Shown here: piece after piece, positions 3,730-48,954 of the stretch
Position numbering within the stretch: the stretch's first letter is position 1
Layout: each line of letters opens with the position of its first letter
Assembly (NCBI RefSeq): GCF_003855395.1
Contig: NZ_CP034015.1
Coordinates: 2,614,001-2,678,000, forward strand
Source of the DNA: Shewanella livingstonensis
Lineage (GTDB): Bacteria; Pseudomonadota; Gammaproteobacteria; Enterobacterales; Shewanellaceae
Direction: 5' to 3'
DNA: 64,000 bases
Program-made: the position numbers and the translations under genes
The notes under the pieces: model-generated
Seen by the model: the letters and a program-made list of their open reading frames with translations, nothing else
Told to the model about the DNA's origin: nothing
The model's database searches: none

Positions 3730-3787
3730 AAATGCCTCGACGAAGATCGCTTAGATAACTAAGCATTATCATCATTCGTTACACTGC

Positions 3788-12103: not shown

Positions 12104-12289
12104 TCTTACCTTTTTCTTATTTATAACAGCTTTTATTTACACGACTATGGTCAAACAAGCCCACAAATAAAACAGTGTTATTTAATGTAAAAAAGGTGTT
12201 TTTGATTGACAAATGTGACCGGTGTTACTTATTTATGCGTTAACAGTTAACTAAATCGAAAAAAGTCTTGTAAAAATTGGATAAAACTT
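12104..12289. promoter_or_regulatory. Promoter region of tetraheme gene copy 1, with a CRP-like site
   Basis: AAATGTGA-CCGGTG-TTACTT at about 12211-12230 has a perfect left half of the CRP consensus and a partial right half with the correct 6-base gap. It lies ~110 bases upstream of the minus-strand cytochrome start. CRP control of anaerobic respiration is well known in Shewanella; its action here is inferred. Confidence 0.45.
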
Positions 12290-12465
12290 AGGCTAAGTAT
12301 GGGGGGTTCTATTAGTGATGATGATAACCACAGTGCCAATGCGCTAGGTTATGATGACGGTTTTACAGGTGCGATTGATGCAAATGCTGCCACTGTGACT
12401 GATAGCGGGATACGAACCGAGATTTATGCAAAAGATCTTGGCAGTAAACGTGGTGATGCTGCGGT
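12290..12465 (+). pseudogene. Fragment of the mtrB-like gene (residues ~55-112)
   Basis: GGCTAAGTAT at 12290 onward repeats 6309-6481 of the mtrB-like gene with only about 7 differences in ~165 bases. At about 12462 the sequence jumps to a copy of the region that normally lies 270 bases after mtrB (GTACATGTCA at 8442 and 12463). Most of the barrel gene is therefore deleted. There is no start or export signal, so nothing functional is expected. It marks a segmental duplication of mtrB-luxR-cytochrome. Confidence 0.9.
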
Positions 12466-12657
12466 ACATGTCAAGGTTTTGAAAATGAGTAAAAAAAGAA
12501 AGTAGAAGAATAGAAAACTATCTGTAATTCAAAGGTCAGAATATGTAAATATTCTAGCTTTTTTTCGACATTCAATTAGTTTGGATATTAATACAAGAGA
12601 CTGGTTCGTTAAGTTGGTAAAGAACTCTGTTCCAACATTGAGATAGTGGTGTACTTG
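12466..12657. repeat. Duplicate of the region downstream of the mtrB-like gene
   Basis: This ~190-base stretch matches ~8445-8633 closely, including a hairpin at 12533-12560 with more mismatches than the original. It joins the mtrB fragment to luxR copy 2. No gene is seen. Confidence 0.8.
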
Positions 12658-13416
12658 TTAGATGATACACTCATGGGTCGCTTTGTAAATGAGCTCCATT
12701 TTGTTCTTTGCAACCAACACCTCCTTAGCTAAATCAAGGTGATAGCTTACGCCTCTTTCAGTAAGATGTAACATGTTGCTAATTTCACTGACGTGAAATC
12801 CCATGGCAGTAAGCTCAATCACTTTGCGTGTTTTAGGTTTTATAGTGCCATTATATTGGCTTGGGCTAGTCAAATTAGAGTACTTTCGGGACATATAAAA
12901 ATGTATTAAATCGAGATAATCAGCGATTTTATTTTTTTCTAAGTAGTCTTCCAAGTCATCTTGCTTTATTTGTTCGCTGAATATAGCAAAACCACCTACA
13001 AAATCTTGTTCAGGACTACTCACAATAATGGTTAGACACGATTCACAACCCAAATTAAATCTGTCTTTTAATGTATCAGACCAAGGCTTATTACTGTCTT
13101 GTGAAAACCAACTAGATAATGGTAAATAACCTTTCGGCCAGTCGCCTTTAAGTGCAAAATCAGGTAACGAAATACTATTGACAGATGCAAATGTCGTTAT
13201 TGGAGTTATTTTTCTCAATATCTTCAGATTAGTGACCAATAATGGATAATTATTTTGAATAACCAATGCCTTAGCAATAGATAGTTTTTTTCCTTTTAAT
13301 TCACCAAGGCCTTCTCTAGGATAGATTTTATAGGCAAGTTCTAATTTGTCATATCTGGATATTTTCTCCTTGAGGTCGCTCATTAAATCTAGTGTTTCTT
13401 TCAAGGTCAAACTCAT
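12658..13416 (-). CDS. LuxR-family transcriptional regulator, copy 2
   Basis: 252 residues, aligning without gaps to copy 1. The last ~60 residues (from NGTIKPKT through the HTH GFHVSEISNMLHLTERGVSY to the identical end KATHECII) are almost unchanged, while the N-terminal sensing domain has diverged strongly. That suggests the same DNA target with a different signal, or sequence exchange confined to the 3' half. It follows the tetraheme gene at 13799 on the same strand. No autoinducer synthase is in view. Confidence 0.82.
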   Translation of the reverse strand: MSLTLKETLDLMSDLKEKISRYDKLELAYKIYPREGLGELKGKKLSIAKALVIQNNYPLLVTNLKILRKITPITTFASVNSISLPDFALKGDWPKGYLPLSSWFSQDSNKPWSDTLKDRFNLGCESCLTIIVSSPEQDFVGGFAIFSEQIKQDDLEDYLEKNKIADYLDLIHFYMSRKYSNLTSPSQYNGTIKPKTRKVIELTAMGFHVSEISNMLHLTERGVSYHLDLAKEVLVAKNKMELIYKATHECII

Positions 13417-19385: not shown

Positions 19386-20370
19386 ACCCAGCTGGCTATT
19401 ATTTATCTTAATTCCGATTTTTATTGTGTCGCCCATATTTGCCATCGCCATGGGAAGTGCCGATATTGCCCTTATTGAAGTGTTTAATTCCTTTAGTCGC
19501 TATGTGATGGGCCAAGAATACGGTTCGTTAACTGACCGAATTATCTTAGAACTTCGACTACCTAGAGTTGTGCTGGCAATGCTATGCGGTGCCGGCCTTG
19601 CAGTATCGGGTACCGTGTTACAAAGCGTGACACGTAATCCACTTGCCGATCCTTATTTATTTGGTATTTCATCGGGTTCAACATTGGGTGCTGTTATTGC
19701 ACTTACCATGGGGTTCAGTGGTGCAAGTCTACCTTTATATGCATTTCTTGGGGCATTAATTGCTGTTTTTGTGGTGATGATGATGGCTCGAGATGGTCAA
19801 GTTGAAGGGCTTATTCTTGCTGGTGTTGCCATTTCATTTTTATTGTCTTCATTGTCAAATATGGTGCTGTATTTCAGTGAAGATCAAGCTATTAAGTCGG
19901 TACTTTTTTGGAATATGGGCAGTTTTAGTCGCGCAAATTGGGATAACTTATTATTCCCAAGCATCGTTGTAATTGGTTCTATTTTCATTGTGTATCAATT
20001 TCAGCGGCCCTTACAAGCACTCATGGCCGGTGATGAAAGTGCTCACACTCAAGGCGTTGCCGTGGTGCCATTACGTTTAGGCATGTTACTGCTTACCGCA
20101 ATGATAACCGCATCGTTAGTGGCGAACTGTGGCGGTATTGGTTTTGTTGGGTTGATGGTTCCTCATATCGTCAGAATGCTCATTGGTGCAGCCAGCAGAG
20201 CAACACTCATAGCCACAGGCTTGTTTGGTTCAATATTAATGGTTTGGGTTGATTTGTTGTCCAGGCAAATATTGGACAATCAAGAATTACCCGTTGGCGT
20301 TGTGACATCAATTATCGGCAGCGTGTTTTTTATAGGCATCTTGATGAAGCGAAAAGGAAAAACATTTTGA
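19378..20370 (+). CDS. btuC: Vitamin B12 ABC importer permease BtuC
   Basis: From the ATG at 19378 the product has 330 residues, the usual FecCD-family length with about ten membrane helices. Family marks are LRLPRVVLAMLCGAGLAVSG, NPLADPYLFGISSGS and the coupling region GGIGFVGLMVPHIVRML. An earlier in-frame ATG at 19357 adds only seven residues inside btuD and is less likely. It forms the importer with BtuD (overlapping upstream) and BtuF (20921). Confidence 0.92.
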   Translation: MLKPSWLLFILIPIFIVSPIFAIAMGSADIALIEVFNSFSRYVMGQEYGSLTDRIILELRLPRVVLAMLCGAGLAVSGTVLQSVTRNPLADPYLFGISSGSTLGAVIALTMGFSGASLPLYAFLGALIAVFVVMMMARDGQVEGLILAGVAISFLLSSLSNMVLYFSEDQAIKSVLFWNMGSFSRANWDNLLFPSIVVIGSIFIVYQFQRPLQALMAGDESAHTQGVAVVPLRLGMLLLTAMITASLVANCGGIGFVGLMVPHIVRMLIGAASRATLIATGLFGSILMVWVDLLSRQILDNQELPVGVVTSIIGSVFFIGILMKRKGKTF

Positions 20371-20924
20371 AGCAACTCATTATAGGTGGCGCGAGATCAG
20401 GTAAAAGCACGTTGGCTACAAAAACGGCGCTAACGTGGCAAAACCTTTCAGGTGGAAAAATTACTTTAATCGTTACGGCTCAACCTGATGGTGTCATCGG
20501 CAGTGAAATGTCTAAACGGATTGTGCATCACCAAATGAATAGACCCAGTGACTGGGATGTTATAGAGGCTTGGACAGATTTAGCTGAGGCGATTGACCAT
20601 GCGCAAGCAGATAATACGCTTATATTAGTTGATTGCTTAACACTGTGGTTGGCTAATGAATTAATGAGTAACGAAGGCAAATGGTTAGCGGCTAAAGCAA
20701 GGTTACTTTCGACAGTGGCCAATAGCCATTGTCCCATCATCATGATTGGCAATGAGGTCGGCCAAGGTGTTGTACCTATGGGAGAGTTTAACCGTAAGTT
20801 TGTTGATGAGTTAGGTTGGCTGCATCAGCACCTTGGTGCAGTAGTGGATACCGTTACTGTGTGTATTGCGGGTTTGCCTATGATACTAAAAAGCAAACAA
20901 ATCAATAGCAGCAATAGCTTATGA
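20367..20924 (+). CDS. cobU: Adenosylcobinamide kinase / adenosylcobinamide-phosphate guanylyltransferase CobU, paralogue 1
   Basis: 185 residues from a TTG at 20367 that overlaps the btuC stop, with AAAAGGA nine bases upstream. Walker A is GGARSGKST (7-15). RIVHHQMNRP holds the histidine that is guanylylated in CobU. DCLTLWLANEL and GNEVGQGVVPMGEFNRKF are the standard downstream motifs. It phosphorylates adenosylcobinamide and adds GMP to make AdoCbi-GDP. A second cobU follows after btuF. This copy is the more canonical of the two. Confidence 0.92.
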   Translation: MKQLIIGGARSGKSTLATKTALTWQNLSGGKITLIVTAQPDGVIGSEMSKRIVHHQMNRPSDWDVIEAWTDLAEAIDHAQADNTLILVDCLTLWLANELMSNEGKWLAAKARLLSTVANSHCPIIMIGNEVGQGVVPMGEFNRKFVDELGWLHQHLGAVVDTVTVCIAGLPMILKSKQINSSNSL

Positions 20925-21862
20925 TGCAGATGACTTATAAACATAAATGGCAACTTAATCCCATTTTTATGGTTATATTTCAATTAACTAGCATCATCTT
21001 ATTGCTTACGTTATCAAGCTTAACGTTTGCTGCTGAGACTCATGTTATTGAACTATTGGATTTATCCAATACGCCTACTCACAAAACCGTCAATAGTATT
21101 GTTGCACTATCACCACATTCAGTTGAACTGCTTTATGAGATAGGCGTTGGGAATAAGATAATCGCCACCGTTGACTATGCAGATTTTCCTGAAGAAGCTA
21201 AAAATATTAAACGTATTGGTCATTCAGATTTCATCGATATGGAAGCATTGCTTGTACTTAATCCCGATTTAGTGGTGTTAAGTTTTGAAGATACCAGCCA
21301 ACCTTTAATCGATCAGCTTAACAATTTACATTTACCTTTATTAGATACCAGTGTCAGTAAGCTAGACGATATAGCAGATAAACTTGAAGAATTGGGTGCG
21401 GCTACTGGGCATTTTGAGGTCGGAAAACAAAAAGCCCAGGTATTTAGACACACTCTTAAGCAGTTACGCGAACGATACAGTCATAAAACGCCTGTAAAAG
21501 TCTTTTATCAAATATGGCCAGAACCGCTTACTACTGTGTCAGGTGGTTGGATGAATGATCTATTAACAGATTGTGGCGCTATTAATATTTTTGCTAACGG
21601 TGTTGCTGCATATCCTCAGGTATCGATGGAGCAAGTGCTAGTCAGAATGCCAGAGCTAATTCTTAAACCTCATTATCACGGTAACAGTAATCAAGAAAGT
21701 ATTGATTGGTCCATGTGGAACGAAATCCCGGCGGTTGCAAATCAGCAAATACAATTAATCAAAGGCGATCTTGTGCATAGAACTGGCCCTCGAGTCGTAA
21801 AAGGGATGGCTAAGGTATGTGAATTAGTTGATGCGGCACGAGAACAACGGGCGGCATTATGA
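20921..21862 (+). CDS. btuF: Vitamin B12 periplasmic binding protein BtuF
   Basis: 313 residues with a signal segment (IFQLTSIILLLTLSSLTFAA) and the BtuF fold: VNSIVALSPHSVELLYEIG, MEALLVLNPDLVVL, then VFYQIWPEPLTTVSGGWMND in the C-lobe. It overlaps cobU-1 by four bases and cobU-2 by four bases, so it is embedded in the cob operon. It delivers corrinoids to BtuCD. It is the most likely true BtuF among the three related binding proteins because of its operon with btuDC. Confidence 0.9.
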   Translation: MMQMTYKHKWQLNPIFMVIFQLTSIILLLTLSSLTFAAETHVIELLDLSNTPTHKTVNSIVALSPHSVELLYEIGVGNKIIATVDYADFPEEAKNIKRIGHSDFIDMEALLVLNPDLVVLSFEDTSQPLIDQLNNLHLPLLDTSVSKLDDIADKLEELGAATGHFEVGKQKAQVFRHTLKQLRERYSHKTPVKVFYQIWPEPLTTVSGGWMNDLLTDCGAINIFANGVAAYPQVSMEQVLVRMPELILKPHYHGNSNQESIDWSMWNEIPAVANQQIQLIKGDLVHRTGPRVVKGMAKVCELVDAAREQRAAL

Positions 21863-22431
21863 TCAGTCTATTTATTGGCGGCGCACGCAGTGGTAAATCA
21901 GGTTTAGCCGAAGCGTTTATTACGGCACAAGCTCAAGGCGAACCCATAATATATGTCGCGACCGCAGAAGCTGCACCAAGTATGCAACAACGCATTGCAC
22001 TGCACCAACAAAGACGTCCGAAAGAATGGGCCGTGATTGAAGAGCCTTATGCACTTGTCGATGTTCTACTAGACAATTCAGATGTAAATCAATGGATTAT
22101 TATTGATTGCCTTACTCTTTGGTTGACCAACCATCTTATAGCTGCAAGCGACCTTAAACAGCAAATAGCACGTCTTATTTATGGACTGCAACGCACCAAC
22201 GCTAATATTGTTTTGGTTTCAACAGAAACAGGGTTGGGATTAATTCCTGATGATGAGATGAGTCAACAATTTGTTATCGCAAGTGGTGAGTTACATCAAG
22301 CCGTTGCTACCTGTGCCGACAATGTCATTTTTTGCCAAGCTAATTTAGCCAACGTATTAAAAGGTAGAGATTATTTCGAGTTAACGTCAAACGCAGCACA
22401 AGCGCAATTGACGTTGGAGGCATTATGCTAA
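21859..22431 (+). CDS. cobU: CobU-like adenosylcobinamide kinase/guanylyltransferase, paralogue 2
   Basis: 190 residues with Walker A GGARSGKSG, the histidine segment RIALHQQRRP and DCLTLWLTNHL. The later motif that reads GNEVGQGVVP in paralogue 1 is STETGLGLIPDD here, so the usual N is T, and the FNRKF arginine region is replaced by SQQFVIASG. Nucleotide or corrinoid preference may therefore differ, or one of the two activities may be lost. It is overlapped at both ends by btuF and cobC. Confidence 0.85.
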   Translation: MISLFIGGARSGKSGLAEAFITAQAQGEPIIYVATAEAAPSMQQRIALHQQRRPKEWAVIEEPYALVDVLLDNSDVNQWIIIDCLTLWLTNHLIAASDLKQQIARLIYGLQRTNANIVLVSTETGLGLIPDDEMSQQFVIASGELHQAVATCADNVIFCQANLANVLKGRDYFELTSNAAQAQLTLEALC

Positions 22432-28593: not shown

Positions 28594-29568
28594 ATGCAGC
28601 AACTAATCAATATTGGTGTCGATCCTAAACCGGGGCATTTACTTCATAATTGGCAGCATGCTGAAACATTTCTGCAGCAATATGGCCTTGATGGTTTTGA
28701 AATCGCTCCACATGGTAATTTTGAATCGAGTTTATTACCCAAATCATTAGTGAAAGGACTTCATCTAACCTTTTTCCCTATCTTGTTGCCGTTTTGGCAG
28801 CAAGATTCTGAGGCATTATTATCAATATTTGGTGACTGGCTAACGGTTGAGCAATATTACGGCGGCCTAGAGCCACAATGTTTAGTTGACACTTATGTAC
28901 ATCAGTTAAATATGGCACAAGATCTTAATGTGCCTTATGTTGTTTTCCATCCGGTGAGTTGCGATATGGAACATTTATTCGATTTTGCATTTCCTTGGCA
29001 GTTACAAGACACGTTAAAAGCGAGTGCAGCTTTGATTAATGCTGCACTTAAACAAAGTTATTTTACAGGTAAGTTATTGTTTGAAAATCTATGGTGGCCA
29101 AGTAGTTTTCGCCTTGATAGTCGGGATGAGTATGATCAATTACGCAAATTGATTAACTATGACAACTGTGGTCTATGTTTTGACACGGGTCATATGATGG
29201 CAACCAATACCCAACTTATGAATGAAAGCGAAGGTGTTGCATTTCTAATGAAAAAACTCCACCAGCTAGACTTATGCAGTGAAATTGAAACGGTACATTT
29301 AAATGCTAATCTCAATGGGAGCTATATTAAGTCGGCTAAGCTAAACCAACAGCCGTATCTGCATTGTGATGATTTTTGGCATCAGCTCGAGGTCGCTTTA
29401 AAACATGTAAGCTTAATTGATAGTCATTCACCTTTCACTCAAGTCTCATTAGTGCCGCTATTAGAATTAATAAAACCTAATCATATTGTCCATGAACTTG
29501 GGCAACCGTCACTTGCTCATTGGCAGCGGTCTATTCATGCACAATTACCTTTGGTGACCCTATGTTAA
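28594..29568 (+). CDS. TIM-barrel protein of the AP-endonuclease-2/xylose-isomerase superfamily; candidate CbiR cobamide-remodelling hydrolase
   Basis: 324 residues with a TIM-barrel pattern and probable metal ligands: GLHLTFFPI, YVVFHPVSCDMEHLF, LLFENLWW, CGLCFDTGHMM, VHLNAN and IVHELGQPS. This is the xylose-isomerase-like/AP-endonuclease-2 layout. CbiR, described from Akkermansia, belongs to this superfamily and cuts the nucleotide loop from cobamides so that they can be rebuilt with another base. Here the gene lies 3 bases after cobO and overlaps cbiB by 7 bases. The superfamily is fairly certain from motifs; the CbiR role rests on context. A different sugar-phosphate activity is the alternative. 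Confidence 0.65.
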   Translation: MQQLINIGVDPKPGHLLHNWQHAETFLQQYGLDGFEIAPHGNFESSLLPKSLVKGLHLTFFPILLPFWQQDSEALLSIFGDWLTVEQYYGGLEPQCLVDTYVHQLNMAQDLNVPYVVFHPVSCDMEHLFDFAFPWQLQDTLKASAALINAALKQSYFTGKLLFENLWWPSSFRLDSRDEYDQLRKLINYDNCGLCFDTGHMMATNTQLMNESEGVAFLMKKLHQLDLCSEIETVHLNANLNGSYIKSAKLNQQPYLHCDDFWHQLEVALKHVSLIDSHSPFTQVSLVPLLELIKPNHIVHELGQPSLAHWQRSIHAQLPLVTLC

Positions 29569-31657: not shown

Positions 31658-32644
31658 TTAGTTTAATTGGATACCTAAATCATTTGCGGCATCATTAGCA
31701 TGTTGTATAAATATAGCCTGTACAGCAGGCTTTTCTCCTAACCCTTCGAGTACAGTGTTAACGTTTATTCCAAGTGTCGTTAACACCGTTTTCCATGAAT
31801 CTTTTTCATCGCCAGCCATATCGTTGTTGGCGTGATCGCCTGCAACAATCATTAATGGACGTAACATTATACTGGTTACATGTTGTGATTCTATTTGCAT
31901 AACGATGTTATTTAAATCAGGAAAACCTTCAACTAACCCCACAAAAGTTTTAACTTGGGGATACATTTTGTTCATCTCTATTTCGAACTCTTTGTACAAA
32001 CCCGTTGATAAATGTTCGTTACCGTGGCCCATATATACCAGAGCTCTATTTTGTAATTTTGCTTGAGCAACATCGTCTTTGAGAGCTATTGCAAGAGAAT
32101 GTATATCTTGATGGTAAGGATATTTAACGCCCCAAGTACCAAGTAACGGACGCCCAAGAGCAAGACGTTTAAAAGGTTTAAATTTGGGTTTTATTGTTTC
32201 AATATCTGCAAGGGCATCGACAATGGCTTTAGTGTCCATGTACTCTTCACCATGTGTTAAATGGGTAGGCTGTACAACAATATTACTAAAGCCTAAGTCT
32301 TGTAAATCAGCGAGAGTACCAAGAACATTTTTTACATTATATAAGGTTGCGGGTACATTCTGATGTTCTGCAATATAGGTTTTATCTGTTGCTCTTTTGT
32401 GCCATTTTTTTCTGATAAAATTAGAGGTAAACGCAAGTCTGACTTCTGTATTTGGATACCTGGTTTGCATTGACGATTTTATATCAAGTAGCGATGCAAG
32501 AGTCGAATCATAAGTGGTACCAAAAGCGGCTATAACGATAGCGTTTTGGGGTTTGTTATCCATATTTTTTTCCGCTGCGTAACTATTAGAGATGAGTAAA
32601 GTTGAACCAATAATGACAGCAAATACCTTATTAAATCGTTTCAT
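31658..32644 (-). CDS. cbiK: Exported CbiK-type sirohydrochlorin cobaltochelatase
   Basis: 328 residues. The first ~24 (MKRFNKVFAVIIGSTLLISN, then SYAA) form a signal peptide, so the enzyme is periplasmic, as with the CbiK(P) form known from Desulfovibrio; the Salmonella enzyme is cytoplasmic. Class II chelatase marks are VIAAFGTTYDSTLASL, the VQPTHLTHGEEY histidines, YMGHGNEH and IVAGDHANNDMAGDE. It inserts cobalt (or iron) into sirohydrochlorin. It is convergent with the cob operon and shows no riboswitch in its leader. Confidence 0.88.
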   Translation of the reverse strand: MKRFNKVFAVIIGSTLLISNSYAAEKNMDNKPQNAIVIAAFGTTYDSTLASLLDIKSSMQTRYPNTEVRLAFTSNFIRKKWHKRATDKTYIAEHQNVPATLYNVKNVLGTLADLQDLGFSNIVVQPTHLTHGEEYMDTKAIVDALADIETIKPKFKPFKRLALGRPLLGTWGVKYPYHQDIHSLAIALKDDVAQAKLQNRALVYMGHGNEHLSTGLYKEFEIEMNKMYPQVKTFVGLVEGFPDLNNIVMQIESQHVTSIMLRPLMIVAGDHANNDMAGDEKDSWKTVLTTLGINVNTVLEGLGEKPAVQAIFIQHANDAANDLGIQLN

Positions 32645-33312: not shown

Positions 33313-33525
33313 GTTGAATGAGTCTTAATATTTAATACTCATTCAACCCTAATTTGAGGGGGAACCAGATGTTATTTCTGGGCTGTACCCGCAACTGTAA
33401 CTGTTTACCTTTATGTACCTAGATTTATATTATAAATGAGTCGTATACATAGAGACAAATCAGAAGCCAGAGAACCCTAATCAACAAAAAAGCTGAATAT
33501 CGGGCGGGCCTATCCGAATCACAGT
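33313..33525 (+). ncRNA. Cobalamin riboswitch 2
   Basis: The core GGGGAACCAGATG...TTTCTGG is followed by GCTGTACCCGCAACTGTAA and by CAGAAGCCAGAGAACCCT at 33461-33478. GCGGG at 33504-33508, in the loop of an ATCGG/CCGAAT hairpin, can pair exactly with CCCGC at 33388-33392 (L5-L13 kissing loop). An 11-bp hairpin (GTTGAATGAGT with ACTCATTCAAC, ~33313-33347) lies at the 5' side. The outer limits are approximate. It precedes the five-gene transporter cluster. Confidence 0.93.
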
Positions 33526-33685
33526 TCAGGTAAGATTGGTATTATTATGTTAATTTATAAAGACATATCCTTAATACCACCTTTACTGGGAAAGAAGTAT
33601 ACCTTTTCTTCTTCAGCAAAATTTAACGTTCTTGGCCGGAACATCAGTTTTAGGATTTCTTCTTTTTGAAGAATAATTAAAATTT

Positions 33686-34585
33686 ATGCCAGTAAATAAT
33701 GTTATGTCAACTTCAGAAGTGCCTTTATCAATCAATACTCCTGTATTAGAAGGTAAAAGTTTACATCGAAGTTTTGGAAAACGAAAAGCTGTAGATAATG
33801 CAAGTTTTTGCATTAATCGTGGAGATATATGCGCTTTCTTAGGGCCTAATGGTGCGGGTAAAACAACGTTAATTAAGATGTTAACAGGCCTAATCTCCCC
33901 CGATTCTGGTGATATTTTATATGATGGTCATGCACATAGTACTGATCGACTAGCATTAAAACAGTTAATTGGCGTTGTTCCGCAACATAATAATATTGAT
34001 CGAGAATTAACCCCCGTAGAAAACCTTACCGTACACGGTTTGTTGTATAAAATGCGTGGCAAAGCACTCACACATAGAATTAACGAAAGTTTAGCCTTCG
34101 CCGAACTTGAAGAACACCGAGATATCCCTTCAGAGAAATTATCAGGCGGAATGAAACGTAAGCTCGTCATAGCTCGTGCGCTTATGCACAATCCTAAAAT
34201 TCTATTCCTTGACGAACCAACGGTAGGACTCGACCCTCATAGCCGACGTAAAATGTGGGATTTTTTATCCAAAATAAATAAAGAATTCGACTGTACCATT
34301 TTCCTCACCACTCATTATATAGAAGAAGCTGAAAGAATGGCCAGTAGGGTCATTTTTATCGATCGTGGCAAAATTATTGCAGACAGTAATGTAGAAACAT
34401 TAAAGCAAGATTTAGGTTCTCATGTACTTGAAGTAGGGCAAGATCGTCGACAAGAGTTTTTTGCCAGCCGTGGGCATGCCATGAACCGATTAGCCGAATT
34501 AGCTGAAACAGTGAGTATCAGACAGACAACCCTTGAAGATGCCTTTTTACAAATGACAGGACAAAGGTTGGTTAAAAATGCTTAG
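33686..34585 (+). CDS. ABC-2 type ATPase under cobalamin riboswitch control
   Basis: 299 residues of the NodI/DrrA exporter type. Walker A is GPNGAGKTT (53-61), the signature is LSGGMKRKLVIARAL, Walker B is ILFLDEPTVGLDP and the H-loop is LTTHYIEEAERM. A ~90-residue C-terminal exporter domain ends in TTLEDAFLQMTGQ. It starts ~160 bases after riboswitch 2 and overlaps the permease gene by 8 bases. Its cargo is unknown. Confidence 0.85.
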   Translation: MPVNNVMSTSEVPLSINTPVLEGKSLHRSFGKRKAVDNASFCINRGDICAFLGPNGAGKTTLIKMLTGLISPDSGDILYDGHAHSTDRLALKQLIGVVPQHNNIDRELTPVENLTVHGLLYKMRGKALTHRINESLAFAELEEHRDIPSEKLSGGMKRKLVIARALMHNPKILFLDEPTVGLDPHSRRKMWDFLSKINKEFDCTIFLTTHYIEEAERMASRVIFIDRGKIIADSNVETLKQDLGSHVLEVGQDRRQEFFASRGHAMNRLAELAETVSIRQTTLEDAFLQMTGQRLVKNA

Positions 34586-35318
34586 TGGAGTTGTAGGGAT
34601 TTATTACCGTGAAACCATGGTGCTTAGAAAGAAACTGTTGCGGGTTGTTATGGCTGCAGCCGTTCCACCTTTTCTTTATTTAATGGCATTTGGTTACGGT
34701 GTCGGAGAGGGAACATCTGTTAACGGGGTTGATTACTTAACATTTTTATTTCCAGGCTTACTCGCCATGGCCAGTATGAATCAAAGTTATAATATTGCGA
34801 CTGAGATCAATATTAGTCGCTTTTACCTGAAAATTTTTGAAGAGTTTTTATTAGCACCGAATCAACGCTGGCAGGTTGTGGCAGCCCAAGTGTTATACGG
34901 AATGACACGAGGATTAATTCCTGTTGGCGTTATCATCTGTTATAGCGTGATATGTGGGGTGAGTTTACATTATTCGCTCGGTTTTGTGATTGCACTGTTA
35001 ATGCACCTTATTGCATTCTCTTTAATGGGATTTATTGTTGCTTTAAAAATGCGTAACCACCGTGACCAAGCATCAATGACCGCATTTATTATTACCCCTA
35101 TGATGTTTTTATCTGGCACATTTTTCCCTGTCGATCAGATGCCAACGATTATTCAAGTTGTGGCCGCTATATCACCACTGACTTACAGTGCTGATTTAAT
35201 ACGTACTGCATTACTTAATAGTGGTGATTTTAATTTTATGTCGTTAATCATCCTTATTGGTTTTAATTTAGTCTTATGTGCTGCAGCGCTTCATATCGCC
35301 GAGCGAGTAGAAACATGA
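34578..35318 (+). CDS. ABC-2 type permease under cobalamin riboswitch control
   Basis: 246 residues with six membrane segments in the compact NodJ/DrrB arrangement and the ABC-2 signature stretches YLTFLFPGLLAMASMNQSYN, NRISRFYLK-like INISRFYLKIFEEFLLAPN and SGTFFPVDQMP. It has no large external domain, unlike the permease at 1859-2842. The final bases overlap the FecCD permease start, so exporter-like and importer-like parts are translated from one message. Confidence 0.85.
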   Translation: MLSGVVGIYYRETMVLRKKLLRVVMAAAVPPFLYLMAFGYGVGEGTSVNGVDYLTFLFPGLLAMASMNQSYNIATEINISRFYLKIFEEFLLAPNQRWQVVAAQVLYGMTRGLIPVGVIICYSVICGVSLHYSLGFVIALLMHLIAFSLMGFIVALKMRNHRDQASMTAFIITPMMFLSGTFFPVDQMPTIIQVVAAISPLTYSADLIRTALLNSGDFNFMSLIILIGFNLVLCAAALHIAERVET

Positions 35319-36265
35319 AAATAATCTGTTTGGCCTGCCTAGTGATATTAAGCTTGATCGCAACACTAGTGGGTCCACATTGGATTAATCCATTTCATAT
35401 GTCGGGTTTGGATGGCGACATCCTGACTCAGTTACGTGTACCAAGAGTACTTTTTGCCGCTGTCATAGGAGCAATGCTTGGGATCAGTGGCAGCATCTAT
35501 CAACTAACGTTAAAGAATCCATTGGCTGATAGTTTTACTACCGGTGCCGCATCGTCTTCGGCATTAGGCGCTGTATTGGCCATTTCGTTGGGTGTTGGTG
35601 GCTATTGGATACCGGTATGTGCTTTCGCAACGGGCATGACAGGCTTATTGTTGGTGTATCGATTGTCGCAAACACAAGGTCGGATAAATCCTATCACTAT
35701 GATTTTGGCTGGCGTGGTAATGAACATTATTGCTTCGGCAATAATCAGTTTCTCTAAGTATTACTTCGAAGATTCGCTTAATGCCATTGTCTATTGGCTT
35801 ATGGGCGGGATTTTTTTAGTTACTTGGGATCGTTTATTGCTCTGTGTTTTGCTTTTTGGCGTTATTTATCTATATCTTCAACGGCGGTCAATGGAACTGA
35901 ATATATTGGCTTTAGATGAACAATCAGCACAAAGTTTAGGTGTCGATGTTAAAAAGTTACGTTCGACTTCGTTTATTTTATCTACTTTGCTTGTCTCGGT
36001 TGCGGTGAGTTTTTCGGGCATTATCGGCTTTGTAGGCTTAATTGTGCCACATATTTCAAGAAGTTTGTTTGGAAGTGATATGAGGCACAACATTTTCTAC
36101 TCGTCTGTATTGGGCAGTGGGTTACTGGTCTTGTCAGATGCATTCTCACGAGTGGTTATACCGGGTGGCGCAGAGCTTCCTGTCGGCATTGTGACCGCAG
36201 TGCTTGGAGGCATGTTCTTTTTCTATCTTTTGCAATCTCGTCGGGAGCATTTTTGGAATGGTTAA
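35315..36265 (+). CDS. FecCD/BtuC-type ABC permease
   Basis: 316 residues from the ATG at 35315, which overlaps the previous stop; an in-frame start at 35276 is inside the preceding gene. Family motifs are LRVPRVLFAAVIGAMLGISG, NPLADSFTTGAASSSALGA and SGIIGFVGLIVPHISR. About ten membrane helices. It belongs with the ATPase at 36258 and the binding protein at 36946 as a corrinoid or metal-chelate importer. Confidence 0.88.
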   Translation: MKIICLACLVILSLIATLVGPHWINPFHMSGLDGDILTQLRVPRVLFAAVIGAMLGISGSIYQLTLKNPLADSFTTGAASSSALGAVLAISLGVGGYWIPVCAFATGMTGLLLVYRLSQTQGRINPITMILAGVVMNIIASAIISFSKYYFEDSLNAIVYWLMGGIFLVTWDRLLLCVLLFGVIYLYLQRRSMELNILALDEQSAQSLGVDVKKLRSTSFILSTLLVSVAVSFSGIIGFVGLIVPHISRSLFGSDMRHNIFYSSVLGSGLLVLSDAFSRVVIPGGAELPVGIVTAVLGGMFFFYLLQSRREHFWNG

Positions 36266-36995
36266 TATAAAAGTTAACAACCTCATTTATCAACGTGGTG
36301 ACTTTAGTTTATCGGTAGACAATTTAATGATTAAATCCGGTGAAAAGGTCGCACTTATGGGCGAAAACGGCTGCGGAAAGAGTACATTATTAGGATTGTT
36401 AACGGGTTTACTTGAACCTGAGTCTGGCAGTATTGTTTATGGGGATATGGCATTAAGCCAGTTATCTTTTCCTGCACGAGCAAAGACATTTTCATTGTTA
36501 GCACAATTTTCTGAGATTTCATTTCCTTTTACTGTCTTTGAGGTTGTTCGTTTGGGGTGTTATGCCCAAAATAGGTTAGGCGAGTTTAGTGCACAAGATG
36601 ATGCCCGAACATTAGCATTGTTAGACTTGCTCGACATTCGCCATTATGCCGAACGAAGTTACGCCGAGTTGTCTGGGGGTGAGAAACGTCGAGTGATGCT
36701 TGCAAGGGTCTTGAATCAGAACACGCCAATTATTTATTTAGACGAACCTAACTCTAGTTTAGATGTTCGGCATACGCTGGATATATTTGCACATTTAACC
36801 AAGCTTAATGCCAGTGTAATTACTTCGGTGCACGATATTAATTTGGCATTACACCATTTCGACCGGTTTGTTTTTTTCAAAAATGGTCGATTACTTTATG
36901 ACGTTAACCGCGCTGATGTCAGCGCTGAATTATTATCTGAGGTATATGATGTTTCGGTTTCTATTGATAATCGCAGCTTTAGCTTTTTCCACTAA
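36258..36995 (+). CDS. FecE/BtuD-type ABC ATPase
   Basis: 245 residues from the ATG at 36258, which overlaps the permease stop. Walker A is GENGCGKSTLLG, the signature is LSGGEKRRVMLARVL, Walker B is PIIYLDEPNSSLD and the switch is TSVHDIN. It is the energy subunit of the importer part of this cluster. The last 50 bases overlap the next gene. Confidence 0.87.
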   Translation: MVNIKVNNLIYQRGDFSLSVDNLMIKSGEKVALMGENGCGKSTLLGLLTGLLEPESGSIVYGDMALSQLSFPARAKTFSLLAQFSEISFPFTVFEVVRLGCYAQNRLGEFSAQDDARTLALLDLLDIRHYAERSYAELSGGEKRRVMLARVLNQNTPIIYLDEPNSSLDVRHTLDIFAHLTKLNASVITSVHDINLALHHFDRFVFFKNGRLLYDVNRADVSAELLSEVYDVSVSIDNRSFSFFH

Positions 36996-37725
36996 CAATT
37001 ATGCCTACGAAAGAGTGGTGTTACTTGCCCCTGCAGCTGGAGACTTATTTATTCAGTTGCAACAGCAGCATAAAGTCGTTGGGGTTACTCGTAATAATGA
37101 CGATTTTAAAGATGCACTTAAAATAGGTAGCCATATAAAGCCGAATATTGAATTGATTAAATCATTAAATCCCGATTTAATCATTATCGATTCGACTCGC
37201 TTTTTTAGTGATGAGATGGCGTCTTTATTAGGCGCAAAAACAGTCATTTATAATCCTGTAACCTTAAATGCTGTGTTAGAGCAAATTCATCATCTTGGCA
37301 CCTTACTCGATTGCCCAAATCAAGCTAATGAGTTAGTCACTACATTAACTCAAGTACTGCAAAAAATTAAGCCTCTGGTCAAAAAACCTTCTGTAATTTA
37401 CGAAGTCACTCAAATGCCCCTGACCATAGCGGGTAAAGGCAATATTGTCAGTGATATTATTCACTCTGCGGGCGGAGAATTAATGGCTCCTTCGACTCGT
37501 AAGCTGATTAAATTTAATGTGGAATCTGTGCTCGTTAGCCAGCCTGATTATTACCTTTATCAAATAGGTCCAATGAACCCCAATCCACAACCACCTGAAA
37601 CACGCCAATTATATAAGATGTTACCGAGCAAGTTTATACAAGTTGAACAATTATCCTACTCTAGAGCCAATAGCCAATCTTTTTATATTGCTGCAGAATT
37701 AAATCGTCAATTTAACAAATCATAA
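36946..37725 (+). CDS. BtuF-like periplasmic binding protein
   Basis: With a start at 36946 (or 36949) the product has 259-260 residues and begins MMFRFLLIIAALAFSTNNY, a signal peptide. The BtuF pattern follows: ERVVLLAPAAGDLFIQLQQ, IELIKSLNPDLIIID, then VIYEVTQMPLTIAGKGNIV and HSAGGELMAP. In-frame ATGs from 36868 would give a long extension inside the ATPase gene. It is the third binding protein of this type in the window and the most divergent, so its ligand may not be cobalamin itself. Confidence 0.82.
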   Translation: MMFRFLLIIAALAFSTNNYAYERVVLLAPAAGDLFIQLQQQHKVVGVTRNNDDFKDALKIGSHIKPNIELIKSLNPDLIIIDSTRFFSDEMASLLGAKTVIYNPVTLNAVLEQIHHLGTLLDCPNQANELVTTLTQVLQKIKPLVKKPSVIYEVTQMPLTIAGKGNIVSDIIHSAGGELMAPSTRKLIKFNVESVLVSQPDYYLYQIGPMNPNPQPPETRQLYKMLPSKFIQVEQLSYSRANSQSFYIAAELNRQFNKS

Positions 37726-37760: not shown

Positions 37761-37924
37761 ACTTGGTTTAACAATCTAAATTACTGATATTTCTCACACT
37801 GTTTTGCCAGCAATTAGTCCCTAAAATTAATCTTAGTTAAGGCGCCTTAAGGCGACTCTATTAGGTTATTAAAGCGATATTTACATCGATAATCACATCG
37901 GTAATTCCATCGTTTAATAATACC

Positions 37925-38108
37925 TATAAGAGTTAGGGGAACCAGATGAAATTTCTGGACTGTACCCGCAACTGTAAAAGATAAAGCGTAGATAAATACG
38001 CAGCTGAACTCAATACCACTGGCGCAAGCTGGGAAGGTGAGATTCAGTATAATCTTGAGCCAGGATACCCACTTTAACCATCATGATAAAAACTGGGCGG
38101 GCGTTCCT
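37925..38108 (+). ncRNA. Cobalamin riboswitch 3, upstream of the cbi operon
   Basis: AGGGGAACCAGATG...TTTCTGG is followed by ACTGTACCCGCAACTGTAA, ACCACTGGCGCAAGCTGGGA and TTGAGCCAGGATACCC at 38054-38069. GCGGG at 38097-38101, in an ACTGG/CCTAGT hairpin, can pair exactly with CCCGC at 37965-37969 (kissing loop). The core is very similar to riboswitch 2. Limits are approximate. High cobalamin should shut down corrin synthesis. Confidence 0.94.
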
Positions 38109-41254: not shown

Positions 41255-42010
41255 ATGACAACTAAAATTGGAAAATTATATGCCATTGGTGTCGGTCCTG
41301 GCGCGGGCGATTTAATGACATTACGAAGCGTGCGTCTACTTAAATCACTTGATGTAATAGCAATACCTGAAAAGACTCAAGGTGCACAAGATTCATTTGC
41401 ATGGGCGATTACTAAACAAGAAGTGCCCGCTGAAGAGGTAAGTGGCGAAAAGCTATTTCTTTGGTTTCCAATGAGTCGAGACCATACCATTACAGTACCT
41501 GCTTGGCACAGAGCTGCTGACGAAATTGTTGAACGGTTGAAGCAAGGTTTAGATGTCGGTTTTATTACCGAAGGGGATCCATCAGTATTTAGCACTTGGG
41601 CTTACCTTCAAGAAGAGATTGCAGAACGTTTGGAACATGTCGAAACAGAAATAGTTCCGGCAGTGAGTTCCATTACGGCAGTACCCTCTGCGACTCAAAT
41701 TCCATTAGCCGATGGAGAAGAAAGATTCTGCGTCGTGCCAGCGACTTATGGCATTGAAATGTTGCCGAGATTGATGGAAGAGTTCGATACCATTATTTTG
41801 ATCAAAGCGGGTCGAATGGTTGAGCCTTTGATTAAATTACTAGAGCCTATGAACATGTTGGATTGTGCAACCTATGTCTCGTATGCAACGGGTGAAAACC
41901 AACAAGTATTTACAGATTTACGTGATGTCCCTAAAGAACACAAATATTTTGCGATGGTACAACTCTCCATTCGTAAACGTAAAGGTATTTTACGTAAAGG
42001 TACTGCGTAA
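41255..42010 (+). CDS. cbiL: Cobalt-precorrin-2 C20-methyltransferase CbiL
   Basis: 251 residues of the tetrapyrrole methylase fold: KLYAIGVGPGAGDLMTLRSV, DVGFITEGDPSVFSTWAYLQ and EIVPAVSSITAVPSATQIPL. It adds the C20 methyl group. The last base overlaps the cbiG start. Confidence 0.93.
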   Translation: MTTKIGKLYAIGVGPGAGDLMTLRSVRLLKSLDVIAIPEKTQGAQDSFAWAITKQEVPAEEVSGEKLFLWFPMSRDHTITVPAWHRAADEIVERLKQGLDVGFITEGDPSVFSTWAYLQEEIAERLEHVETEIVPAVSSITAVPSATQIPLADGEERFCVVPATYGIEMLPRLMEEFDTIILIKAGRMVEPLIKLLEPMNMLDCATYVSYATGENQQVFTDLRDVPKEHKYFAMVQLSIRKRKGILRKGTA

Positions 42011-43575
42011 TGCGCATTGCCATTCACGCTATTACCCGTAAGGGGCAGTTGCTAGCCATGCAACTTGCCTCTAGGTTAGAAAATGCTGAAGTATTTGTTC
42101 TCGATCGCAGTGGCGAGTGGGGCGGAGATACCGCCTCAAAACAGACACTTAAAGATCATTTGAGTGATAGCTTTAGTCAATTTGATCAACATATTGGTAT
42201 TTTCAGTGTAGGCATTGCAACACGGTTACTCGCTCCATTGTTACAGGATAAACGCACTGACCCAGGGGTGATATGTGTCGATGAGGCGGGGCAGTTTGTC
42301 GTGCCAGTGTTAAGTGGCCACCGGGGCGGAGCCAATGAAATAGCCAAAAAAGTGGCAAAAATACTCAAGGCACAAGCGGTGATCACCACCGCTTCGGATA
42401 CATCTGAAACTTTAAGTGTTGATATGTTTGGCAAGCCACTAGGATGGCATTTAGCCGCCGAGTCTGAGGAGCATATAACGTCCGTATCGAGTGCTGTTGT
42501 AAATGGCGCAGCAACACTTATTTGGCAACAAAGTGGTCAAAAAAACTGGTGGATCTACGCTAAAAGAATGCCAGAGCACATTTGGGTAAGTGAAACTCAA
42601 CAGCAACCTGATTTATCTACTTATTCAGCTGCGATAATCATTAGTAACAAGCAGCATGTTATTGATACTGATTTACCTCATGTTATTTGGCGTCCCACCA
42701 ATATAGAAATAGGTATTGGTTGTGACAGAAATACTCCCCTACATGTTTTACAGCAAGGTTTAGCTTATTTTTTAGAAAAAAATAATTTACACCCTAATTC
42801 AATTGCAGGTGTGCACTCTGCAGAACTTAAAGCCAACGAGCTTGGCATTATTGAATTAGCCAAACAACTTAAATTGAATTTTCACTGTTATCCAGCGAAA
42901 ACGCTTGCTGAGGTTGAGGGGATAGAAAATCCTTCTGAAACTGTTCTACGTTGCATTGGGATTAGTTCTGTAGCAGAAGCGGCATGTTTGCATGGTAGTC
43001 AACGAAACAAACTCCTTATCCCTAAGTTTAAATTTAATGCCGACGGTTTCAACATGACATTGGCTGCATGTGAAAGGCATTTCAATGAACCCATGTTAGC
43101 AAAAAAGCGCAAAAATATTTGTGGTGAAACAATCGCTATTTCACACAGTTCACATAGAGCAAGTCATGGGCATAAGAAAGAAGAAAATAAGGGATTAATT
43201 AGAGAGACAAAAGCAAAGCCAATTAAACAATATGCCCATCATTTATTTGTTTGTGAAGGGGGTCGTTGTCAGGACGAAGGCGCCGCAGGGTTAGCACATT
43301 ATATTCGTCAAATTCTTAAATCAATGCAACTAAGTAGTGGCACTAGAAGGATTAAAGTTACCCGTAGTTATTGCGTTGGCGCTTGTAGACAACGTGCTAC
43401 AGCAGCCATATACGCTCGAAAGCAACAAGATCCCAATCATAGTGTGTGGTTACAATCTTTAGAATTATTAACAGAAGAAAAATGGCGGCAAGTATTACAA
43501 GCTATCGCTGACTCAGCACCATTGAATGAATTGTTAGATACTGATTTTATTGCAGAAGTAGAAGCATGTAATTAG
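42010..43575 (+). CDS. cbiG: CbiG with C-terminal thioredoxin-like [2Fe-2S] ferredoxin domain
   Basis: 521 residues. Residues ~1-375 are CbiG, which opens the delta-lactone of cobalt-precorrin-5A with loss of acetaldehyde: VGIATRLLAPLLQDKRTDP, VVPVLSGHRGGANEIA, IGIGCDRNTP and GVHSAELKANELGI. After a charged linker, residues ~408-521 form a thioredoxin-like ferredoxin with cysteines at 415, 420, 455 and 459 (CEGGRC and CVGAC). Stand-alone ferredoxins of this type occur in some cbi operons (CbiW of Bacillus megaterium). Fusion to CbiG is unusual to my knowledge. Confidence 0.9.
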   Translation: MRIAIHAITRKGQLLAMQLASRLENAEVFVLDRSGEWGGDTASKQTLKDHLSDSFSQFDQHIGIFSVGIATRLLAPLLQDKRTDPGVICVDEAGQFVVPVLSGHRGGANEIAKKVAKILKAQAVITTASDTSETLSVDMFGKPLGWHLAAESEEHITSVSSAVVNGAATLIWQQSGQKNWWIYAKRMPEHIWVSETQQQPDLSTYSAAIIISNKQHVIDTDLPHVIWRPTNIEIGIGCDRNTPLHVLQQGLAYFLEKNNLHPNSIAGVHSAELKANELGIIELAKQLKLNFHCYPAKTLAEVEGIENPSETVLRCIGISSVAEAACLHGSQRNKLLIPKFKFNADGFNMTLAACERHFNEPMLAKKRKNICGETIAISHSSHRASHGHKKEENKGLIRETKAKPIKQYAHHLFVCEGGRCQDEGAAGLAHYIRQILKSMQLSSGTRRIKVTRSYCVGACRQRATAAIYARKQQDPNHSVWLQSLELLTEEKWRQVLQAIADSAPLNELLDTDFIAEVEACN

Positions 43576-48232: not shown

Positions 48233-48752
48233 TTAATTTGAGCATGTTGAAGAAATTTGTGAAGACAATAGTGCGAGAAAATGGGCTATTCTTCGTCAAA
48301 AGTATCTAATTATGCTTGGTAAGACACATTAATTGACCCTATCGGCACCAAAGGATGACGGGCTACACCTTGTACGGCAAAGCTGCACAAGGGATACGAT
48401 GGAACAATTTCAACTTGGAAAAATGTACGCGAATGTACTTCCGATTTCTTGTCCTGTAGGCGATTAATTAACCGCCTACCTTACTTTCATCTAAATATCT
48501 TTAGGCTTCAAGGGTATTCAGTATGGTGGTCATAGTCGGAATTGCTTAAAACATAGTTTGGGCACTTAGGCACAAATTTGGGCACAAATGCTGTTAACTA
48601 TTATTTTATTGACGTCTAAAGAATTTATTTTAGTGATGGCTTAAACGTATAATCTTGTTTGAATACTCAAAGGGGTTTTAGATTAGTATTCGGAGTAAGG
48701 CACACTTTTTAAAAAAAATCTAATAAATAAGTGATTGAATTTTATAGTGAAA
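48233..48752. other. Intergenic region with hairpins and GGCAC repeats
   Basis: No gene is assigned. CCTTGT (48369-48374) pairs with ACAAGG near 48388, and GTAGGCG pairs with CGCCTAC around 48457-48480. GGCAC-containing units recur at about 48562-48594 (TTTGGGCACTTAGGCACAAA, then TTTGGGCACAAAT). Such units beside tRNA genes can be leftovers of an integrated element, but no integrase frame is present. Confidence 0.35.
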
Positions 48753-48829
48753 TGGTACACCCGAGTGGACTCGAACCACCGACCCCTACCATGTCAAGGT
48801 AGTGCTCTAACCAGCTGAGCTACGGGTGT
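48753..48829 (-). tRNA. tRNA-Val (GAC), copy 1
   Basis: 77 nt on the minus strand including the encoded CCA (TGG at 48753-48755). The acceptor ACACCCG pairs with CGGGTGT. The D-arm is AGCTCAGCTGGTTAGAGC, the anticodon stem CTACC/GGTAG encloses TTGACAT with anticodon GAC, and the T-loop is GGTTCGAGTCC. Confidence 0.97.
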
Positions 48830-48877
48830 ATTGTTTACTTTTATTACAATTCCAATGTTTAGACTCTTTGAAAAGAG

Positions 48878-48954
48878 TGGTACACCCGAGTGGACTCGAA
48901 CCACCGACCCCTACCATGTCAAGGTAGTGCTCTAACCAGCTGAGCTACGGGTGT
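48878..48954 (-). tRNA. tRNA-Val (GAC), copy 2
   Basis: An identical 77-nt tRNA-Val(GAC), 48 bases upstream of copy 1 in transcription order. Both end in an encoded CCA. The bases just 5' of the two genes (ATTGTTTACTTT type) are also repeated, showing tandem duplication. Confidence 0.97.

What the first reader, a model, noticed from the sequence alone, without database searches (positions are those of the whole stretch)
33313..37725. Riboswitch-controlled hybrid of an ABC-2 exporter and a FecCD/BtuF importer
Five overlapping genes under one cobalamin riboswitch encode two complete but mechanistically opposite ABC systems. A true BtuDCF is already present at 18-22 kb. The set lies directly before the cbi operon, and the window has no recognisable cobalt importer (no CbiMNQO or NikR-type site). 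A cobalt-chelate or precursor importer paired with export of the emptied carrier is one attractive, untested idea. This is the best candidate here for an undescribed system.
Basis: partly seen in the sequence, partly recalled or inferred. Interest (0 to 1): 0.75.

Follow-up and report, generated by a model that had tools for sequence, protein, structure and literature searches.

The report
Cobalt inserted outside the cell membrane
A gene set under vitamin B12 control appears to push a B12 building block out through the inner membrane, where a secreted enzyme adds cobalt, and then to pull the cobalt-loaded molecule back in; if true, these bacteria could make B12 without importing free cobalt.

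Summary
The five overlapping genes and their riboswitch are real. It is the only CbiK in this one-contig genome, which has no CbiX, CobN or CbiM/NikM hit. In 5 of 5 Ferrimonas loci the six genes form one riboswitch-led operon. Searching from the exporter permease alone, 16 of 18 close homologues in the order of Malonomonas lie within 3 kb of an exported CbiK; the other two end at contig edges, with an exported CbiK elsewhere; in 15 of 18 cbiL follows. The unit pairs with at least four diverged CbiK lineages, all apparently exported. Best explanation: ABC-2 exports metal-free sirohydrochlorin or precorrin-2, periplasmic CbiK inserts cobalt, FecCD plus binding protein re-import the chelate. The evidence is comparative only. 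Caveats: a Met8/CysG-like protein might insert cobalt in the cytoplasm; two distant exporter homologues accompany signal-less CbiK; most exported CbiKs lack this exporter nearby. Ten library searches found no description of such a unit.

The parts
31658..32644 (-). cbiK: CbiK-family sirohydrochlorin cobaltochelatase with N-terminal signal peptide (read from sequence), divergent from the five genes
   Evidence: PF06180 E 1.4e-72, 244.7 bits; residues aligned to the Salmonella catalytic set are H207, E239, H271; only PF06180 hit in the genome; first gene of the colinear operon in 5 Ferrimonas loci
33323..33491 (+). cobalamin riboswitch aptamer upstream of the five genes
   Evidence: RF00174, 35 bits, cut-off 31.5, E 3.3e-5; stronger copies lie before homologous operons
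33686..34585 (+). X1: ABC-2 exporter ATPase (NodI/DrrA-like)
   Evidence: PF00005 E 4.2e-35; best NCBIfam TIGR01188 drrA 266.5 bits, below its cut-off 312.45
34578..35318 (+). X2: ABC-2 exporter permease
   Evidence: PF01061 E 1.6e-23; 492 homologues at E<=1e-3; core clade of 31 rows, support 99
35315..36265 (+). X3: FecCD/BtuC-type importer permease (ORF open from 35276; start at 35315 inferred)
   Evidence: PF01032 E 1.1e-78
36258..36995 (+). X4: importer ATPase (ORF open from 36204; start inferred)
   Evidence: PF00005 E 9.5e-29; best NCBIfam is the heme ABC transporter ATPase NF010068, 189 bits against a cut-off of 261, not met
36946..37725 (+). X5: periplasmic binding protein with signal peptide (ORF open from 36868; start at 36946 inferred)
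   Evidence: PF01497 E 9.7e-17; profile of 24 homologues hits IsdE, a vitamin B12-binding protein and a heme-binding protein first in the PDB; His63 invariant in 24 of 24
37913..38090 (+). second cobalamin riboswitch, before cbiD (linked context)
   Evidence: RF00174, 71.5 bits
38139..46619 (+). cbi operon read as cbiD, C, ET, L, G, H, F, cobA (context); no gene between cbiG and cbiH, where three relatives carry a signal-less CbiK-family gene
   Evidence: comparison; Pfam of one relative's genes. cbi gene names in the window are mostly my reading; Pfam confirms CbiG

Best explanation
The six genes form an export-metallate-reimport loop for anaerobic vitamin B12 synthesis. When B12 is low the riboswitch allows expression of X1-X5 (usual mode of this riboswitch, recalled). 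X1X2 (ABC-2) exports the metal-free ring, sirohydrochlorin or precorrin-2, into the periplasm (inferred). The exported CbiK inserts cobalt there (enzyme family and catalytic residues shown; location inferred from the signal peptide). X5 binds the resulting cobalt-sirohydrochlorin and X3X4 bring it back, where CbiL, the next enzyme, takes it on (family and gene order shown; substrate inferred). In effect the B12 precursor is its own cobalt carrier, and no free-cobalt importer is needed.
For: (1) The exported CbiK is the genome's only PF06180 hit, with 0 PF01903, 0 PF02514, 0 PF01891. (2) Colinear riboswitch-led cbiK-X1-X2-X3-X4-X5 in 5 of 5 Ferrimonas loci; same set on a Calditerrivibrio plasmid, another phylum. 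(3) Search from X2 alone: 3 of 394 genomes of the window's order hit, all three beside an exported CbiK; 19 of 136 genomes of the Malonomonas order hit, 18 close, of which 16 have an exported CbiK within 3 kb, 2 have it on another contig, 15 have a CbiL-like gene next to X5. (4) At least four diverged CbiK lineages pair with the unit, all apparently exported; one looks like a recent swap. (5) In 88 CbiK loci CbiM lies within 6 kb of 0 of 72 exported but 7 of 16 signal-less CbiKs; FecCD near 42 of 72 against 4 of 16. (6) Three relatives have a signal-less CbiK between cbiG and cbiH where the window has none; one of them (G128) has a riboswitch-led CbiM operon beside the cluster, while 8 of 8 PF01891 loci fetched from X+ genomes have neither riboswitch nor cbi genes within the 11-12 kb fetched. 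(7) The X5 profile hits tetrapyrrole binders first. (8) In 17 of 24 X+ genomes the exported CbiK is the only CbiK, CbiX or CobN found.
Against: No biochemistry. The genome has one Met8/CysG-N-like protein (PF13241, 303 aa; naming my reading) that might insert cobalt in the cytoplasm. PF01891 transporters occur in 27 of 35 CbiK-locus genomes, 8 of the 9 X+ ones among them, so loss of importers is not a rule. The riboswitch-CbiM contrast rests on one genome fetched (G128); the stretches of G002 and G102 show no CbiM. Two distant X2 homologues outside the core clade sit beside signal-less CbiK without FecCD (L083, L094). Four signal-less CbiKs have FecCD neighbours. 61 of 72 exported CbiKs show no X2 within 6 kb (some contigs short), among them L062, next to the window's CbiK on the tree and with neither X2 nor FecCD near. 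The window's cbiK is not behind its riboswitch. Export was judged by a hydrophobicity script and by eye, not a trained predictor. CbiK loci are not independent samples.
Confidence: 0.6

Rival explanations
1. Two jobs, merely co-regulated: X3-X5 is a second corrinoid importer, X1X2 is an overflow or unrelated exporter, and exported CbiK metallates precursors scavenged from neighbours rather than the cell's own.
For: FecCD and BtuF-like families include B12 importers; Rodionov 2004 names the system co-regulated with Desulfovibrio cbiK-cbiL btuCDF (PMC545781 passages); 61 of 72 exported-CbiK loci show no X2 within 6 kb.
Against: A separate BtuB/BtuD/BtuC/BtuF set is in the window behind its own riboswitch; X1-X5 stay with exported CbiK through partner swaps; with no other CbiK, CbiX or CobN found, the cell's own ring would need the exported enzyme, unless the Met8/CysG-like protein serves.
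Confidence: 0.2
2. Cobalt uptake by another chelator: X1X2 exports an unknown metallophore, X3-X5 import its cobalt complex, and CbiK is a periplasmic cobalt-handling step.
For: Exporter plus importer in one unit; no CbiM/NikM. Metallophore systems of the staphylopine type pair an exporter with an importer (recalled).
Against: No recurring gene that I could read as metallophore synthesis among the clustered neighbours; the recurring partners are CbiK and a CbiL-like gene, maker and user of the cobalt ring; the X5 profile hits tetrapyrrole binders first.
Confidence: 0.1
3. A heme or iron system like Porphyromonas Iht: exported CbiK-like protein handles heme, X3-X5 import heme or iron.
For: IhtB is a CbiK-like lipoprotein with a binding protein, permease and ATPase, thought to take iron from heme (PMC10913741 passages); the third PDB hit of window CbiK is FetB, a heme-binding protein; D. 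vulgaris CbiKP is called a haem-binding protein (a title in a reference list).
Against: Cobalamin riboswitch and cbi context; the two D. vulgaris haem histidines (positions recalled) align to Met136 and Asp143; among 17 aligned proteins these positions hold His once and never; no TonB receptor in the unit.
Confidence: 0.07

Closest known systems
Desulfovibrio vulgaris CbiKP (PDB 2XVX-2XVZ; that these entries are CbiKP is recalled)
   Same: CbiK family, periplasmic (PMC4063343 passage); in Desulfovibrio one B12 element controls cbiK-cbiL and btuCDF (PMC545781 passages; which of its CbiKs is meant is not stated there)
   Different: No ABC-2 exporter in the passages I saw; its haem histidines (recalled positions) are not conserved here
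Porphyromonas IhtABCDE
   Same: Exported CbiK-like protein plus binding protein, permease and ATPase (PMC10913741 passages)
   Different: Heme/iron setting, lipoprotein, TonB receptor; no ABC-2 exporter and no cobalamin riboswitch in the passages seen
Salmonella-type CbiK plus CbiMNQO
   Same: CbiK family and the catalytic residues
   Different: Signal-less chelatase next to CbiM; such comparators here are L059, L108, L111, L115, L120, L128, L136
BtuCDF corrinoid importer
   Same: FecCD permease, ATPase, PF01497 binding protein
   Different: X3 homologues in six loci are 47-76% identical to window X3 but 33-36% to window BtuC; Btu equivalog cut-offs not met
Metallophore export/re-import cycles (staphylopine type; recalled)
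   Same: An exporter and an ABC importer in one unit around a metal carrier
   Different: Here the proposed carrier is a pathway intermediate loaded by an enzyme and consumed after import

Membership tests
CbiK sirohydrochlorin cobaltochelatase | Match to the CbiK family model over full length | tested here: met
   PF06180, 244.7 bits against 26.2, model 2-261 of 262
CbiK sirohydrochlorin cobaltochelatase | NCBIfam equivalog cut-off NF047852 | tested here: not met
   166.9 bits against 400
CbiK sirohydrochlorin cobaltochelatase | Catalytic residues equivalent to Salmonella His145 and His207, with the Glu between (Glu175 recalled) | tested here: met
   H207, E239, H271; His, Glu, His in 17, 16 (one Asp) and 17 of 17 aligned unit-associated proteins, window included
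CbiK sirohydrochlorin cobaltochelatase | Cobalt insertion into sirohydrochlorin | not testable with these tools
   needs an enzyme assay
Periplasmic CbiK (CbiKP of D. vulgaris) | Signal peptide / export | tested here: met
   hydrophobic N-terminus with an A-x-A-like end before the core; script and reading, no trained predictor
Periplasmic CbiK (CbiKP of D. vulgaris) | Two haem-binding histidines | tested here: not met
   aligned positions are Met136 and Asp143; residue numbers in D. vulgaris recalled
FecCD/BtuCDF-type importer | FecCD permease, ATPase and PF01497 binding protein together | tested here: met
FecCD/BtuCDF-type importer | BtuC, BtuD, BtuF equivalog cut-offs (that is, a B12 importer) | tested here: not met
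   X3 205-206 bits against 334 and 461; X4 112 against 281; X5 34 against 234
ABC-2 exporter | ABC2_membrane permease plus ATPase, coupled genes | tested here: met
   PF01061 and PF00005; 8-base overlap
ABC-2 exporter | DrrAB or NodJ subfamily cut-offs | tested here: not met
   266.5 against 312.45; 96.4 against 223; 69.7 against 207
Porphyromonas Iht heme system | TonB receptor in the unit and lipoprotein CbiK homologue | tested here: not met
   no receptor among the six genes (BtuB as I read it lies at 16584-18383); no lipobox in window CbiK
Cobalamin riboswitch regulon | RF00174 upstream | tested here: met
   for the window; for relatives

The most novel reading that the evidence does not exclude
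Cobalt insertion outside the cytoplasm is a general second design of anaerobic B12 synthesis, found in several phyla (apparently exported or lipoprotein CbiK with a FecCD gene near it in loci named as Pseudomonadota, Desulfobacterota, Deferribacterota, Campylobacterota, Spirochaetota, Bacillota, Fusobacteriota and Planctomycetota), in which the pathway's own ring acts as a cobalt carrier; the X1-X5 unit is the version in which the exit door is visible. A biosynthetic intermediate that leaves the cytoplasm to receive its metal and then returns would be a new kind of pathway layout.
Probability: 0.35. Interest if true: 0.9.

Novelty: new variant of a known kind. Interest (0 to 1): 0.8.

Why it matters
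It offers a direct answer to a point left open in 2004: the delta-proteobacteria studied that had cbiK lacked homologues of any known cobalt transporter, and a candidate (cbtX) was only predicted (PMC545781 passages). It also gives a reason why some CbiK enzymes are periplasmic. A pathway that sends its intermediate out for metal loading would keep free cobalt out of the cytoplasm and make the two transporters obligatory B12 genes. It predicts simple phenotypes, so it can be tested, and it changes how genomes are read: some 'BtuCDF' or 'iron ABC transporter' genes beside exported CbiK may carry cobalt-sirohydrochlorin.

Tried and rejected
Strict replacement of CbiM by the unit: rejected as a rule, since PF01891 is in 27 of 35 genomes searched (36 asked for, one not held). 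It holds only as a regulatory contrast, on one comparator genome: no cobalamin riboswitch at 8 of 8 PF01891 loci fetched from X+ genomes, one at G128.

Linkage through CbiK-found loci alone would be biased, so X2 was used as an independent query. Four genomes (G538, G539, G540, G544) are in both sets. Shared contig lengths between the X2 and CbiK protein lists: 30 distinct lengths among the 119 listed hits each (query hit left out; 492 and 6289 found in all), 19 under 100 kb, against a jitter mean of 0.8 and maximum of 5; for long contigs this shows the same contig, not adjacency.

Dropped rows: L095 (N-terminus cut off) and L106 (at a contig end, N-terminus unclear) were left out of the 88-locus count; L095, L106, L131 and L065 out of the CbiK tree. 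Only the best CbiK of each locus was counted; a second, signal-less one in L019 was not. The signal-peptide threshold (1.6) was set so that weak but clear Ferrimonas peptides count; L137 is ambiguous and counted as signal-less. Weak PF01903 hits: those in Ferrimonas lie in frames that read as ferrochelatase, those in G539 and G943 lie in their CbiK, and that in G923 (32 bits) in a long lipoprotein-like frame; G923 is counted as an exception.

Structures of X5 and X2: never obtained. Papers on D. vulgaris CbiKP (Lobo 2008, Romao 2011) and on Vibrio BtuF are not held, so what I say of them is recalled. Searches behind 'not found in print': in a library without most subscription journals; of the hits I read passages of nine papers and no whole text.

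Full report
What is there. The five overlapping plus-strand genes at 33686-37725 are an ABC-2 ATPase and permease (X1, X2), a FecCD permease (X3), its ATPase (X4) and a PF01497 binding protein whose N-terminus reads as a signal peptide (X5). A cobalamin riboswitch lies at 33323-33491 (35 bits, cut-off 31.5); a second, stronger one at 37913-38090 precedes the cbi operon.

The missing member. The divergent gene at 31658-32644 is CbiK (PF06180, E 1.4e-72). Its N-terminus reads as a Sec signal peptide. The residues aligned with the Salmonella catalytic residues are His207, Glu239 and His271 (His145 and His207 of Salmonella from PMC7689651 passages; the Glu recalled). In 17 aligned unit-associated proteins, the window's included, these positions are His in 17, Glu in 16 (Asp in one) and His in 17.

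Only chelatase found. The window lies in a 4.84 Mb one-contig genome. It has 1 PF06180 hit (this gene), 0 PF01903 (CbiX), 0 PF02514 (CobN) and 0 PF01891 (CbiM/NikM). One 303-aa protein with a strong PF13241 hit looks, by my reading, like the Met8/CysG N-terminal part; it could make sirohydrochlorin and might insert cobalt. That is the main caveat.

Conservation in the family. Of 146 family genomes searched, 15 have a PF06180 hit: 6 full-length ones of the window type (the own genome among them), 1 fragment (G015) and 8 with a shorter, weaker match; G007 has both a window-type and a weaker one. In the five besides the own genome (Ferrimonas, identified by matching contig lengths), cbiK-X1-X2-X3-X4-X5 is one colinear operon with a riboswitch upstream of cbiK; in four of the five cbiD, C, ET, L, G follow on the same stretch, while G007's cbi operon lies apart. 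Of the genomes with only the weaker, signal-less CbiK I looked at three: G002 and G102 carry a SirC-like gene and the CbiK-family gene between cbiG and cbiH, G128 the CbiK-family gene alone; the window has nothing there (Pfam checked for G002 only).

Conservation beyond. A CbiK search of the plasmid collection gave Calditerrivibrio pCALNI01 (another phylum): ABC-2 pair divergent, then cbiA, cbiK, X3, X4, X5, cobA, cobI.

Test from the exporter side. Starting from X2 alone: in the window's order 3 of 394 genomes hit at E<=1e-30, all three beside an exported CbiK. In the order of Malonomonas 19 of 136 genomes hit at E<=1e-40; 18 are close (55% identity or more). Of these 18, 16 have a CbiK with a signal peptide within 3 kb; the other two clusters end at contig edges and their genomes have such a CbiK on another contig; 15 of 18 have a CbiL-like gene (28-32% to window CbiL) next to X5. 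Four of the 18 are the genomes of L061, L063, L064 and L077 above. The nineteenth (35% identity, 4.8 kb contig) shows X1, X2 and a BtuB-like gene only. In the plasmid collection X2 hits one record, the same Calditerrivibrio plasmid.

Partner swaps. On a CbiK tree built without the N-terminus, CbiKs linked to core-clade X2 fall in three separate well-supported groups; a fourth partner (L183) is only 25% identical to window CbiK while its X2 sits on a very short branch beside those of L179 and L077. All read as exported. The exported/signal-less label needs 7 changes on that tree, of which well-supported branches force 5.

Exported against signal-less CbiK. In 88 loci (72 exported, 16 not), CbiM lies within 6 kb of 0 of 72 against 7 of 16 (Fisher 1.8e-6), FecCD of 42 of 72 against 4 of 16 (p 0.025; well-flanked loci 34 of 48 against 3 of 15, p 7.5e-4), X2 of 11 of 72 against 2 of 16. 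FecCD and CbiM are never both near. These loci are related, so the p-values overstate.

Importers elsewhere. PF01891 is present in 27 of 35 genomes with CbiK loci, 8 of 9 X+ ones among them, so the unit does not strictly replace it. But at the PF01891 loci of those 8 X+ genomes no cobalamin riboswitch and no cbi gene was found in the 11-12 kb fetched, whereas the signal-less-chelatase relative G128 has a riboswitch (86.3 bits) before its CbiM operon, beside cbiB and cobD. A 2009 survey reports riboswitch- or cbi-linked NikKMLQO operons in five proteobacteria, Shewanella sediminis among them, and reads them as cobalt importers (PMC2667541 passages). The other eight look like nickel importers (my reading).

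Chelatase inventory of X+ genomes. Of 24 (6 Shewanellaceae, family name my inference; 18 of the Malonomonas order), 17 have the exported CbiK as their only CbiK, CbiX or CobN beyond weak superfamily matches. Exceptions: G007 (second CbiK), G544, G966, G964 (CbiX), G890 and G950 (CobN; G890 also a partial PF06180), G923 (a CbiX-domain hit in a long lipoprotein-like protein, itself perhaps exported). Some of these are draft or metagenome assemblies.

Binding protein. The X5 profile finds IsdE, a vitamin B12-binding protein and a heme-binding protein first in the PDB. His63 is invariant in 24 of 24; it aligns to a His in the B12-binding protein 5ysc and lies next to a position that is Met in IsdE. 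That these are metal ligands there is recalled, so this is only a lead.

Mechanism. Gene order (chelatase, exporter, importer, binding protein, CbiL), the apparent location of the chelatase and the lack of another chelatase fit a loop: metal-free ring out, cobalt in, chelate back, CbiL. Shown: families, order, conservation, riboswitch, catalytic residues. Inferred: export of CbiK, substrates and direction of both transporters.

Against it. L083 and L094 pair a distant X2 (39%, outside the core clade) with a signal-less CbiK and no FecCD. L073, L079, L093 and L137 pair FecCD with a signal-less or unclear CbiK. 61 of 72 exported CbiKs show no X2 within 6 kb; L062, beside the window's CbiK on the tree, has neither X2 nor FecCD near. 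The window's cbiK is not behind its riboswitch.

Known relatives. D. vulgaris CbiKP is periplasmic (PMC4063343 passage); in Desulfovibrio one B12 element controls cbiK-cbiL and btuCDF, and the cbiK-bearing delta-proteobacteria studied lacked known cobalt transporters (PMC545781 passages). Sulfurospirillum has cbiK next to BtuCDF-named genes (PMC7755780 passages). Porphyromonas Iht is a heme/iron relative (PMC10913741 passages). I found no description of an ABC-2 exporter with exported CbiK, or of sirohydrochlorin export, in searches (listings, and passages of nine papers).

Verdict. A real, conserved, B12-controlled six-gene unit. Export-metallate-reimport is the best explanation (0.6). It is a new variant built from known families; if the loop is shown, the layout of the pathway would be new.

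Noticed in passing
window 1859-4828: A second ABC-2 pair (1859-2842 and 2839-3729, minus) divergent from a PF01497 binding protein (3875-4828, plus), next to genes that read as multiheme cytochrome and MtrB-like; no Rfam match there.
   Followed up: partly
L143/L053 (G015): A CbiK remnant (C-terminal part only) lies directly before a fragment 68% identical to the window's second ABC-2 permease, near a transposase-like ORF.
   Followed up: partly
L103-L140 (Bacillota, Spirochaetota): Many CbiK proteins carry lipoprotein-type N-termini, some with an extra N-terminal stretch with a recurring DTGDASLDDPRN-like motif; many lie near FecCD or cbi genes.
   Followed up: partly
L083 5351-6274, L094 around 9700-12777: Distant X1X2 homologues beside CbiK without signal peptide; in L094 separate riboswitches precede cbiK and X1.
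   Followed up: partly
L217 1072-3255 (G923): A long lipoprotein-like protein with two CbiX-domain stretches (32 and 25 bits), perhaps another exported chelatase relative.
   Followed up: no
window 42010-43575: CbiG has a C-terminal extension with Cys-rich, ferredoxin-like motifs (my reading) that no Pfam model covered at E 1e-4.
   Followed up: no
window 28594-29568: A xylose-isomerase-like TIM barrel gene (PF01261) sits among the cob genes and is kept at 62% in two Ferrimonas loci.
   Followed up: no
window 20367-20924 and 21859-22431: Two CobU-like genes flank BtuF (my reading of the ORFs).
   Followed up: no
window 48655-48954: Two tRNA-Val genes (gac) of equal score on the minus strand; an HPnc0260 antisense RNA match overlaps one of them on the plus strand.
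   Followed up: no
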